Source of the DNA: an uncultured Mycoplasmatota bacterium
GTDB taxonomy: Bacteria > Bacillota_I > Bacilli_A > RF39 > UBA660
DNA length: 48,290 nucleotides
Reading direction: 5' to 3'
Assembly (NCBI GenBank): GCA_947571135.1
Contig: CANOWY010000008.1
Location: forward strand, 1-48,290
The translations under genes were made by a program, and so were the position numbers. Of the stretch, positions 41,615 through 45,039 are shown in pieces. Positions within the stretch are counted from its first letter, which is position 1, and the number at the start of each line of letters is the position of its first letter. The notes beneath the pieces were generated by a model. That model was not told the origin of the DNA. It worked only from the letters and a program-made list of their open reading frames with translations, and did no database searches.

Positions 41615-43111
41615 CTATTTATCTTTTCTTAACTTATTATTAGTTAATGTGTAAAGAACATCACATACTTCTAAAATATATTTTCTATCATGCGATACAC
41701 TAATAATACATCCAGAAAATTCACATAAACTTTTACGTATAACAGGATTAGACAAAGGACTGATATTCCTTGTAGGCTCATCAAGTAACAAAACATTACA
41801 TTTAGATAAAACAAGTTTCAATAAAATCAATTTTGCTTTCGAACCATTACTTAAACTTTTTATCTTGCCTGTCATTTCTTCCCTTGTAAAATTCAAATTT
41901 CCTAAATACATACGTGCGGTAGTTTTATCAATATCTTCATCGCAAAGATAATCCAAAACCGTTTCATAGTAATCTAAAATCAAACTATAATCTTGGGGCA
42001 TGTAGCCGACTTTTATATCTTGGCGTTTTTTTAAAGTCTCATAGATTTTAGAAAGTAAAGTAGATTTCCCTACTCCATTCTTTCCTACTATACATATGTG
42101 TTCATTTCCCACAACTTCTAACTGAATATCTCTAGCAAGCACTTTTTCTTCTACTATTAATTTAGGAATTTCTAATTTCAAAATAATTTTAGTTTTAGGA
42201 AGACTTACATTTTCAAAAAAAAGACGAATATGCTCCTCCACATCTGGCACTCTTGTAAGTTCTTTGTTACCTAATTTCTTCTCTTGCGATTTTAGAGTAT
42301 GCATTTTTTTCTTTAAAACTTTTGCTCCATGAGGATTGCTTCTAGAAATTGTATTTTGCTCAAATTCTACTTTTTGCATCACTTTTTTTAACTTATCTTC
42401 TTGTTTTTTATATTCTCTTGCTTTACTATGAGCCAGTTGAGTTTGTTTTTCTAATAGTCGTACTCTATTAGTAACATAAGTATCATAATCCACATTTAAA
42501 AGAGTATGACTACATTCTGTTTTGTGTTTTACTTGTTCTAAGTGTAAAATGCGATTGGCAGTATGAGAAAGAAGCGTTTCATCATGAGATACATAAAGAA
42601 TAGGTTTTTCTGTATGACAAATAAATTCTTCTAACCATTCTAATGTTTCAATATCTAAATCATTCGTAGGTTCATCTAAAAAATATAAATCTACTTCTAT
42701 AAGCATTAACTTCAGTATCCCAATTTTTACTTTTTCACCACCAGATAATGTACCTAATTTTTGGGTTAAAACTTCTTCTTTCAGTTGTAGTATTTCTAAG
42801 TATTTATAAAATAAAGTGATTTTGTCATAATAGGCATTTTCATTTTCAAACAAATAAGTAAAAACACTTGTATCAAAATGGTCAATACTCATACTTTGTT
42901 CTAAATAACCAATCGTATACCCATGAAAATAAATGCTCCCTGTATAAGTAACATAATCACAAATTCCTAGTAAAGTTTTAATTAAAGTAGATTTTCCATT
43001 GCCCTCTTCTCCAATAATGGCAAGTTTATCCCTTTTATTCAAAGTAAAAGATAAGTTTTCAATGATTGTTTTATCATTTTGTACAATAGTTAAATTTTTA
43101 ACTTCAAACAT
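41615..43111 (-). CDS. ABC-F ATPase, ribosome-protection type (putative)
   Basis: 498 residues with two ATP-binding cassettes and no membrane domain. NBD1: Walker A GEEGNGKST (34-42), signature LSGGE, Walker B FLDEPTNDLD. A charged linker of about 60 residues (LLEKQTQLAHSKAREYKKQE) occupies the interdomain position that reaches the ribosome in ABC-F proteins. NBD2: Walker A GKNGVGKST, a signature changed to LSNGS, and LLLDEPTRNISP instead of the usual DEPTNHLD. ABC-F proteins act on ribosomes and many give resistance to lincosamides, pleuromutilins or streptogramins. Which drugs, if any, cannot be read. The attenuator-like leader at 43109-43206 supports an inducible resistance role. Confidence 0.88.
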   Translation of the reverse strand: MFEVKNLTIVQNDKTIIENLSFTLNKRDKLAIIGEEGNGKSTLIKTLLGICDYVTYTGSIYFHGYTIGYLEQSMSIDHFDTSVFTYLFENENAYYDKITLFYKYLEILQLKEEVLTQKLGTLSGGEKVKIGILKLMLIEVDLYFLDEPTNDLDIETLEWLEEFICHTEKPILYVSHDETLLSHTANRILHLEQVKHKTECSHTLLNVDYDTYVTNRVRLLEKQTQLAHSKAREYKKQEDKLKKVMQKVEFEQNTISRSNPHGAKVLKKKMHTLKSQEKKLGNKELTRVPDVEEHIRLFFENVSLPKTKIILKLEIPKLIVEEKVLARDIQLEVVGNEHICIVGKNGVGKSTLLSKIYETLKKRQDIKVGYMPQDYSLILDYYETVLDYLCDEDIDKTTARMYLGNLNFTREEMTGKIKSLSNGSKAKLILLKLVLSKCNVLLLDEPTRNISPLSNPVIRKSLCEFSGCIISVSHDRKYILEVCDVLYTLTNNKLRKDK

Positions 43112-43150
43112 TTATGCCTCCTATTTGGCATAATCAAAAGTTTATGCCTG
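43109..43150 (-). promoter_or_regulatory. Mutually exclusive hairpins masking the ABC-F ribosome binding site
   Basis: The minus strand has GGCATAA (43148-43142), TTATGCC (43133-43127) and GGCATAA again (43118-43112). The middle element can pair with either copy, giving a 7-bp stem and 8-nt loop in both cases. The second copy overlaps AGGAGG (43122-43117) and the spacer before the ATG, so that pairing would hide the ribosome binding site. Confidence 0.75.
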
Positions 43151-43152
43151 AC

Positions 43153-43170
43153 TTAAAAAAAAGTTCTCAT
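43153..43170 (-). CDS. Leader peptide MRTFF
   Basis: A five-codon ORF (ATG AGA ACT TTT TTT TAA) with a strong TTGGAGG eight nucleotides upstream lies between the promoter and the ABC-F gene. It ends 4 nt before the first GGCATAA of the hairpin set. Short leader ORFs of this type sense ribosome-stalling antibiotics upstream of erm and several ABC-F genes. Confidence 0.65.
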   Translation of the reverse strand: MRTFF

Positions 43171-43200
43171 CTTCACACCTCCAAGGCAATTCTTAAATAT

Positions 43201-43206
43201 ATTATA
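43201..43206 (-). promoter_or_regulatory. Promoter -10 for the leader/ABC-F transcript
   Basis: TATAAT about 30 nt before the leader ORF. The -35 is poor. Confidence 0.5.
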
Positions 43207-43216
43207 ACACGTTTAA

Positions 43217-43248
43217 TTCAAAAAAATGACTTATTAAGCCACTTTTTT
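43217..43248 (-). terminator. typA terminator
   Basis: AAAAAGTGGCTTA and TAAGTCATTTTT arms, one bulge, at the end of typA, followed by T. The same region holds the start of the ABC-F promoter. Confidence 0.55.
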
Positions 43249-45039
43249 ATTTCTATATCTATCTTTTGGATCTAAATATTCTTTACGAAGACGAATGTCC
43301 TCTGGGGTTACTTCCACATATTCATCATCTTCAATAAATTCTAACGCTTCTTCTAATGTAAATTTCTTAGGTGTTGTTAAATTAATGGCTTCATCTGCAC
43401 CACTACTACGTGTATTCGTTAAGTTTTTATTTTTACAAGGATTGACATCTAAATCATTATCTCGGTTATGAATTCCCACGATCATCCCTATATATACTTC
43501 TGTTGCTGGTTCAATTATCAAAGTACCACGATCTTGTAAATTCCATAGAGAATAACCTAAGGCTTTTCCATTTTCCATAGAAACCAAAACACCATTCTTA
43601 CGTCTTGTAATTTCTCCTACAAACGGTTTATATTCTTCAAAACTACGAACCATTATTCCTTCTCCACGCGTATTGGTAATAAATGCACTTCTATATCCGA
43701 TCAAACCACGTGTTGGAGCACTAAACTCTAAATGGGCTTGATTATTTTCACTAGATACAACAAGTAATTGTCCTTTTCTTTCTTGTAAATCACTAATTAC
43801 TGTTCCTGAATATTCTTCTGGACAATTTATAATAACACGTTCAAATGGCTCATACTTTTTACCATCTCTTTCCTCCATCAATACCTGTGGTTTTGAAACA
43901 GAAAGTTCATATCCTTCACGACGCATATTCTCTAAAAGAATAGATAAATGTAGTTCTCCTCGTCCACTTACTTTATAACCATCAGCATTTTCTAAAGGTT
44001 CTACTACTAATCCTACATTAGTTTGTAATTCACGTTCTAGTCTTTCTTTAATATGGCGAGTGGTTAAAAACTTACCACTTTTTCCAACAAAAGGAGAATT
44101 ATTAACTAGAAAGTTCATAGATAATGTTGGTTTTTCAATCTCAATAGGAGGAAGAGGATCTATATGATCTTTATCGCAAATCGTATCTCCAATAGAAATA
44201 TTAGGACATCCAGCAATGGTAACAATATCTCCATAATAAGCAATATTTTTTTCTATCTTATTTAAACCTTCATTTACAAAAACTTTCGTAATTTTGAATG
44301 ATTCTAAACTTCCATCATTTTTAGATAGTGCTACCATTTGTCCTGCCTTAATAGAACCTTTTGTAACTCTACCAATTCCAAGTCGACCAATATATTCATC
44401 GTATCCTAAATTAGAAATTTGCAATTGTAAATGATCACTTTCATTTCCTTCAAAAGGTTTTACAACTTCTAAAATAGTATCCAACAAAGGAGCAATAGAA
44501 TTAGATTCCTCCTCCAAACTTTTCTTGGCAATTCCATCTCTTGCAACCCCATAAATAATTGGAAAATCAAGTTGTTCATCTGTTGCATTTAACTCCATAA
44601 ATAAATTAAATGTCATATCCACAACCTCTAGGGGTCTTGCATCTTTTTTATCAATTTTATTAATAAATAAAATAGGTCTTAGATTTTGTTCCAAGGCTTT
44701 CTTTAAAACAAATCTAGTTTGAGGCATTGGCCCTTCTGCAGAGTCAACTAAAAGTACAACGGTGTCAACTGTCTTAATGACACGTTCCACTTCACTTGAA
44801 AAATCCGCATGCCCTGGAGTATCCACAATGTTAATTTTAACATCTTTATAACGAATGGCACAGTTTTTAGAATAGATAGTGATTCCACGTTCTCTTTCAA
44901 TGTCATTGCTATCCATAACACAATCTACTTTTTCATCATGCTCTGAAAACACACCGTTTTGCTCCAATAATGCATCTACTAATGTACTTTTTCCTGCATC
45001 AACATGTGCTACAACGGCAATATTTATAATTTTATCCAT
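43234..45039 (-). CDS. typA: Translational GTPase TypA/BipA
   Basis: Ribosome-associated GTPase related to EF-G, involved in ribosome assembly and stress or low-temperature growth. 601 residues, usual length. G1 AHVDAGKST, switch I region [13 protein letters not shown]3 [16 protein letters not shown]4 NKIDK, then domain 2 ([20 protein letters not shown]), domain III, domain V (FAP-like [21 protein letters not shown]) and a C-terminal TypA-specific domain ([20 protein letters not shown]). All typical motifs present. Own promoter with consensus spacing. Confidence 0.98.

What the first reader, a model, noticed from the sequence alone, without database searches (positions are those of the whole stretch)
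43109..43206. ABC-F gene behind a leader ORF and competing hairpins (erm-like translational attenuator)
Seen in sequence: -10 TATAAT, then a strongly initiated ORF (MRTFF stop), then GGCATAA / TTATGCC / GGCATAA with 8-nt loops. The second GGCATAA overlaps AGGAGG of the ABC-F gene, so TTATGCC either pairs upstream (site open) or downstream (site hidden). Known: erm and several ABC-F resistance genes are switched by drug-stalled leader ribosomes. Inference: this gene is drug-inducible. Direction is unclear, since a ribosome stalled at the leader end could cover the first copy and favour masking. A weaker TGCCT near the leader Shine-Dalgarno (about 43183-43187) could pair with the first AGGCA and give a four-element switch. 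The five-residue leader is unusually short.
Basis: partly seen in the sequence, partly recalled or inferred. Interest (0 to 1): 0.75.

Follow-up and report, generated by a model that had tools for sequence, protein, structure and literature searches.

The report
Leader-ribosome switch on ABC-F gene
Just before a probable antibiotic-protection gene, this gut bacterium carries a tiny reading frame and a three-part RNA switch, conserved in dozens of relatives, that most likely turns the gene on when a drug stops ribosomes at the very start of the tiny frame and off when ribosomes finish it.

Summary
On the minus strand, a leader ORF (MRTFF-stop, 43153-43170) precedes GGCATAA / TTATGCC / GGCATAA (copies 1, 2, 3). 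Copy 3 overlaps the AGGAGG of an ABC-F gene (41615-43111). None of 1000 shuffles reaches the three-copy score, and the 1:2 element occurs once in the genome. Fifty-six non-identical orthologous upstreams carry a 3-9-codon leader plus all three copies. Pairing survives change: one genus changed all three copies together, and most other internal changes are G-U-compatible. More distant orthologues lack the switch. No intrinsic terminator was found.

In 56 of 56 loci a ribosome on the leader start codon leaves copy 1 free, while a ribosome at the leader stop covers 4-7 of its 7 bases. Folding with those footprints makes the ABC-F start site about 4.7 kcal/mol harder to open for a ribosome at the stop (55 of 56). 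So an early stall should switch the gene on and completed leader translation off: trp-like logic, opposite in polarity to erm. The 47 different leader peptides argue against nascent-chain sensing and fit start-codon-arresting drugs. Drug response and resistance are untested. New variant of a known kind.

The parts
43201..43209 (-). Extended -10-like promoter element TGTTATAAT
   Evidence: Sequence; also present at the same distance in the closest relative L003; no -35 match
43184..43188 (-). TGCCT, possible extra partner of copy 1 (AGGCA); not a general feature
   Evidence: Only the window and L003 (TACCT/AGGTA); chance level across 56 loci
43176..43182 (-). Leader ribosome-binding site GGAGGTG
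   Evidence: Conserved GGAGGTG/GAGGTGA in nearly all of 56 orthologues
43153..43170 (-). Leader ORF MRTFF-stop (ATGAGAACTTTTTTTTAA)
   Evidence: 56 of 56 switch-bearing loci have a 3-9 residue leader; in-frame stop at or before copy 1 in 55 of 56 against 35 and 25 in the other frames
43142..43148 (-). Copy 1 GGCATAA (5' arm of the proposed ON hairpin 1:2)
   Evidence: 99.1% of cells paired with copy 2 over 50 sequences, about 21-47% when slid
43127..43133 (-). Copy 2 TTATGCC (shared arm of both hairpins)
43112..43118 (-). Copy 3 GGCATAA (3' arm of the proposed OFF hairpin 2:3, overlaps the ABC-F SD)
   Evidence: 98.3% of cells paired with copy 2, about 29-55% when slid
43117..43122 (-). ABC-F Shine-Dalgarno AGGAGG
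   Evidence: Sequence
41615..43111 (-). ABC-F ATPase gene, 498 aa, probable ribosome-protection factor
   Evidence: NCBIfam ribo_prot_ABC_F best match, 298 bits, below the cut-off of 380; profile best PDB matches VmlR2, Sal(B), VmlR

Best explanation
This is a three-element translational attenuator in which the position of the leader ribosome sets expression of the ABC-F gene. When ribosomes complete the 5-codon leader, the ribosome at the stop codon covers copy 1, copy 2 pairs with copy 3, and the ABC-F Shine-Dalgarno site and the sequence up to its start codon are hidden (OFF). When a ribosome is arrested at the leader start or in its first codons, copy 1 stays free, the 1:2 hairpin can form (favoured because it is transcribed first), and the ABC-F start site opens (ON). 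Drugs known to arrest ribosomes at start codons (lincosamides, pleuromutilins, streptogramin A) are the expected inducers, and the ABC-F protein would then protect the ribosome and restore repression. Shown by computation here: anatomy, conservation, pairing, footprint geometry and folding energies. Inferred: ON/OFF polarity in cells, drug identity, resistance, autorepression.
For: 56 non-identical upstreams with a leader and all three copies. Both stems paired in 98-99% of cells over 50 sequences, with one genus changing all three copies together (L102, L105: GGTATA/TATACC/GGTATA). Start-to-copy-1 distance is 17-29 nt (mode 25), so a ribosome on the start codon covers none of copy 1 while one at the stop covers 4-7 of 7 bases, in 56 of 56. 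Energy to open the ABC-F SD-to-AUG region averages 4.1 kcal/mol with a start-stalled ribosome and 8.8 with a ribosome at the stop; the stop state is harder to open in 55 of 56. In-frame stop preserved (55 of 56 against 35 and 25) but 47 different peptides and no third-codon-position excess, which fits sensing of position rather than of a nascent chain. Closest solved relatives VmlR2, Sal(B) and VmlR. LSAP drugs stall at leader start codons (PMC12421871), and the CplR leader consensus is MR[I/M] (PMC10201436), as here (Arg at residue 2 in 45 of 56). No intrinsic terminator found.
Against: Only one clear three-way covariation event; the stems are otherwise nearly invariant. At equilibrium the window RNA with a start-stalled ribosome still favours 2:3 (p12 0.01 full length, 0.17 if the RNA ends at the AUG), so the ON state would rely on co-transcriptional folding or on arrest at codon 3 (p12 0.41). 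Across loci the start-stalled ensemble is split about 0.42 to 0.57. The ribosome footprint used is the standard one, not measured. No expression or drug data exist for these uncultured species, and three close orthologues lack the hairpins (L043, L074, L076).
Confidence: 0.68

Rival explanations
1. Classic erm/cat/MsrDL-type attenuator: a drug plus nascent peptide stalls the ribosome late in the leader and this stalled ribosome induces the gene.
For: Leader ORF, sequestered SD and alternative hairpins are the shared anatomy. [quoted passage not shown]
Against: A late-stalled ribosome covers copy 1 and leaves 2:3 as the strongly preferred structure (mean p23 0.97), hiding the SD. 47 different peptides show no third-position bias, so no conserved stalling peptide. 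Four-element pairing is at chance level.
Confidence: 0.12
2. General translation-status switch: any fall in leader translation (low initiation, starvation, many drug classes) opens the gene; no specific drug arrest is needed.
For: Without any ribosome the start site is also easier to open (4.9 kcal/mol) than with a ribosome at the stop (8.8); peptide not conserved. Broad-sensing leaders exist (toiL, whiB7; PMC12121999).
Against: Strong leader SD and strongly preferred Arg at codon 2 (45 of 56, including CGC/CGA) suggest selection on early codons; the gene is a probable ARE ABC-F, whose known leaders sense PLSA drugs (PMC10201436).
Confidence: 0.13
3. The hairpins form a ribosome-independent switch (temperature, ligand or protein binding) and the leader ORF is incidental.
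For: Stem sequences are nearly invariant and part of the 1:2 loop is conserved in the main clade, as a binding site could be.
Against: Leader SD, start and in-frame stop are conserved with the hairpins; stems tolerate pair-preserving changes; no Rfam family matches.
Confidence: 0.04
4. Inert shared sequence: conservation reflects recent spread of the gene with its 5' flank, not function.
For: The gene is patchily distributed (62 of 386 family genomes).
Against: Orthologues are 52-68% identical in protein, sequence upstream of the leader SD is unalike, and leader codons vary freely, yet the stems and SDs stay fixed; the tree fits one gain and a few losses.
Confidence: 0.03

Closest known systems
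C. difficile cplR leader (uORF MRI; transcription plus translation attenuation), PMC10201436
   Same: Short leader starting Met-Arg before an ARE ABC-F gene; hairpin that hides the main SD; retapamulin and lincomycin inducible in cplR
   Different: cplR uses a 5' hairpin over the uORF and an SD-hiding terminator with poly-U in a 212-nt leader, and uORF start-codon loss abolishes expression. Here three short elements downstream of the uORF, no terminator found, and uORF loss is predicted to raise basal expression
B. subtilis vmlR leader (uORF MIN), PMC9226507
   Same: Very short leader, start-codon arrest by PLSA drugs, alternative RNA structures, closest protein relatives
   Different: vmlR uses RNAP pausing, an intrinsic terminator and four stem-loops in a 219-nt leader; none of that plan was found here
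msrD leader (MsrDL, MYLIFM), PMC10314930
   Same: 6-residue leader in front of an ABC-F gene
   Different: Macrolide-specific nascent-chain arrest at the stop codon blocks a terminator; here peptide variable, no terminator, and a late stall predicted to repress
ermC-type translational attenuators (own knowledge)
   Same: Leader ORF; hairpin swap that opens or hides the downstream SD
   Different: ermC has four segments and induction by covering segment 1; here three segments, and covering segment 1 favours masking
E. coli toiL-topAI, PMC12121999
   Same: Leader ribosome controls an SD-hiding structure; start-codon arrest by tetracycline and retapamulin induces
   Different: In toiL a stall anywhere in the uORF disrupts the hairpin; here early and late stalls are predicted to have opposite effects
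trp-type attenuation (own knowledge)
   Same: Early stall favours the permissive structure, a ribosome at the leader stop favours the repressive one
   Different: trp acts on a terminator and senses charged tRNA; here the output is the start site of a probable resistance gene

Membership tests
Translational attenuators (erm/cat type) | Leader ORF with its own ribosome-binding site upstream of the gene | tested here: met
   56 of 56 switch-bearing loci
Translational attenuators (erm/cat type) | Hairpin hiding the SD and a competing hairpin that frees it, conserved in homologues | tested here: met
Translational attenuators (erm/cat type) | Leader-stalled ribosome covers element 1 or the hairpin and thereby frees the SD | tested here: not met
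   By computation only: covering copy 1 gives mean p23 0.97 and a 4.7 kcal/mol higher opening cost
Translational attenuators (erm/cat type) | Induction by a ribosome-targeting drug | not testable with these tools
   No expression data
ARE ABC-F uORF attenuators (vmlR, cplR, vgaL, msrD) | Short uORF, mostly 3-6 residues, upstream of an ARE ABC-F gene | tested here: met
   PMC10201436, PMC9226507, PMC10314930
ARE ABC-F uORF attenuators (vmlR, cplR, vgaL, msrD) | Premature intrinsic terminator in the leader | tested here: not met
   None between leader and gene; 2:3 is followed directly by the start codon
ARE ABC-F proteins | Two ABC domains with catalytic Glu and a long helical linker | tested here: met
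   E147 and E445 invariant in 18 sequences; linker helices 209-255 and 260-281 in the model, pLDDT 91
ARE ABC-F proteins | Reaches the curated score of a resistance ABC-F family | tested here: not met
   298 bits against 380 for ribo_prot_ABC_F
ARE ABC-F proteins | Closest relatives are resistance ABC-Fs | tested here: met
   Profile best matches VmlR2, Sal(B), VmlR ahead of Uup, YheS and EttA; fold search is mixed, with PoxtA, VmlR2 and human ABCF1 on top
ARE ABC-F proteins | Confers antibiotic resistance | not testable with these tools
   Needs MIC assay

The most novel reading that the evidence does not exclude
A three-element, terminator-free attenuator that reads where on the leader the ribosome stops: arrest on the first codons, or no translation, opens the resistance gene, while finishing the leader (or stalling late) closes it. 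That is the reverse of erm and of other studied antibiotic-sensing leaders that act on translation, and it is conserved across one family of uncultured gut Bacilli.
Probability: 0.55. Interest if true: 0.62.

Novelty: new variant of a known kind. Interest (0 to 1): 0.5.

Why it matters
Of the ABC-F resistance leaders described in the papers I read, nearly all rely on a transcription terminator, alone or together with SD masking. This clade has a compact design (about 60 nt from leader start to gene start) with only SD masking and, by geometry, inverted stall-position logic. It would explain how ABC-F genes in uncultured gut Bacilli sense drugs that arrest ribosomes at the start codon, predicts that a late-stalling drug would not induce, and is simple enough to test in a single reporter.

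Tried and rejected
Four-element switch with TGCCT: chance level across 56 loci. Extended OFF helix between copy 1 and the ABC-F start codon, as in the window's minimum-free-energy fold: the flanking base does not follow the gene's second codon in the alignment (judged by eye), so not claimed. Known RNA family: no Rfam match. Whole-leader fold of 43080-43206: z-score only -0.63, so plain folding stability is no evidence. Occurrence before other genes: the covariance model found strong hits only at this ABC-F gene or its 5' remnants, as far as checked (G315 not opened). CplR family search in genomes failed because the family was not accepted. The Listeria vgaL upstream shows a GC-rich hairpin with a T run, read by eye; I did not resolve its leader. 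The vga(A) paper is not held.

Full report
What is there. On the minus strand of the window an ABC-F gene (41615-43111, 498 aa) is preceded by TGTTATAAT (43201-43209), a leader Shine-Dalgarno GGAGGTG (43176-43182), a leader ORF ATG AGA ACT TTT TTT TAA (MRTFF, 43153-43170), and three 7-nt elements: GGCATAA (43142-43148), TTATGCC (43127-43133) and GGCATAA (43112-43118), the last overlapping the gene's AGGAGG. The two possible 7-bp hairpins share the middle element and are nearly equally stable alone (-7.4 and -7.7 kcal/mol). The score of the three-element arrangement is reached in 0 of 1000 dinucleotide shuffles, and GGCATAA-N(3-14)-TTATGCC occurs only here in the genome.

Relatives. A protein search of 386 genomes of the family found the gene in 62, so it is an accessory gene; more orthologues came from genome contigs. 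I compared 56 non-identical upstream regions that carry the whole arrangement. The sequence before the leader SD is unalike between loci, while leader SD, leader ATG, leader stop, the three elements and the gene's SD are conserved. Over 50 sequences, 99.1% of cells pair in hairpin 1:2 and 98.3% in 2:3, against 21-55% when partners are slid. The stems are nearly invariant, as expected if one base must suit two partners. In one genus (L102, L105) the third position changed in all three copies at once (C-G-C to T-A-T); of the other internal changes most are G-U compatible, and two break one hairpin. That is a single clear three-way event, so covariation is supportive rather than overwhelming. The protein tree puts the switch in one supported clade with losses in L043, L074 and L076; distant orthologues lack it (L035 is labelled as lacking in that tree only because its contig is cut).

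The leader. It is 3-9 residues long (34 of 56 have six). Residue 2 is Arg in 45 of 56, including CGC and CGA codons; otherwise there are 47 different peptides and no excess of change at third codon positions. The in-frame stop at or before copy 1 is present in 55 of 56 loci, against 35 and 25 in the other two frames (Fisher p 1e-6 and 6e-11; related sequences make these p-values optimistic). So the frame and its end are kept while the peptide is not. This argues against a nascent-chain-specific sensor like MsrDL (PMC10314930).

Direction. With the usual footprint (15-16 nt downstream of the first base of the P-site codon), a ribosome at the leader start covers none of copy 1 in 56 of 56 loci (start-to-copy-1 distance 17-29, mode 25), while a ribosome with the stop in its A site covers 4-7 of its 7 bases in all. 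Constrained folding gives p(2:3) 0.97 on average for the ribosome at the stop, and 0.42 for 1:2 against 0.57 for 2:3 when stalled at the start. The cost of opening SD-to-AUG is 8.8 kcal/mol at the stop, 4.1 with a start-stalled ribosome and 4.9 with no ribosome; stop exceeds start-stalled in 55 of 56. For the window itself the costs are 4.5, 5.4, 2.4, 9.5 and 8.9 kcal/mol for P-site codons 1-5. Finished leader translation therefore closes the gene and early arrest opens it. At equilibrium the window RNA leans to 2:3 even with a start-stalled ribosome, so co-transcriptional formation of 1:2 probably matters; this is inference.

What it senses. Lincosamides, streptogramin A and pleuromutilins arrest ribosomes at start codons of ABC-F leaders (PMC12421871, PMC9226507), and the Clostridial cplR leader consensus is MR[I/M] (PMC10201436); one orthologue here (L090) has exactly MRI. 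The ABC-F protein is closest by profile to VmlR2, Sal(B) and VmlR among solved structures, but it falls below the curated score for ribosome-protection ABC-Fs (298 against 380 bits), and the fold search does not separate resistance from housekeeping ABC-Fs clearly. Resistance is thus inferred.

Comparison. Known ABC-F leaders described in the papers read use a terminator, alone or with SD masking; none was found here. ermC-type switches have four elements and are opened by covering element 1; here covering element 1 closes the switch. The logic is that of trp attenuation applied to a start site. A covariance model of the leader finds strong hits only at this gene or its 5' remnants in the family sample, as far as checked, one further orthologue in another family of the class (G670; its DNA matches a goat-gut bin, so binning may be at fault), and none beyond the family in the phylum sample.

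Verdict. A real, conserved, ribosome-read translational attenuator; the most likely polarity is early stall on, completed leader off. New variant of a known kind. No experiment has been done.

Noticed in passing
L119 and L071 (genome G418, contig C2: 73572-73658 and 49150-50607): Attenuator plus the first ~24 codons of the ABC-F gene lie about 23 kb from the rest of the gene on the same strand, as if an element had inserted into the 5' end of the gene.
   Followed up: no
window 43219-43249 (minus strand): A 14-bp A/T-rich hairpin flanked by A and T runs just after the TypA/BipA-like gene (43234-45039), probably its terminator, immediately upstream of the leader promoter.
   Followed up: partly
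L002 and relatives, loop of hairpin 1:2 (window 43134-43141): The loop ACTTTGA/ACTTTTGA/ACTTTAA is conserved in the main clade but not in basal lineages; no partner found.
   Followed up: partly
L074, L103, L015 upstream regions: These ABC-F orthologues keep a leader ORF (MRIMKQEKL, MRILLSKK, MISIVTLKR) but have no recognisable hairpins.
   Followed up: no
L092: The leader ORF (MRIIVTSLA) runs into copy 1 and ends on the TAA inside it.
   Followed up: no
L041/L080 (same gene in two collections): ABC-F reading frame holds two in-frame TAA codons although the attenuator is intact.
   Followed up: no
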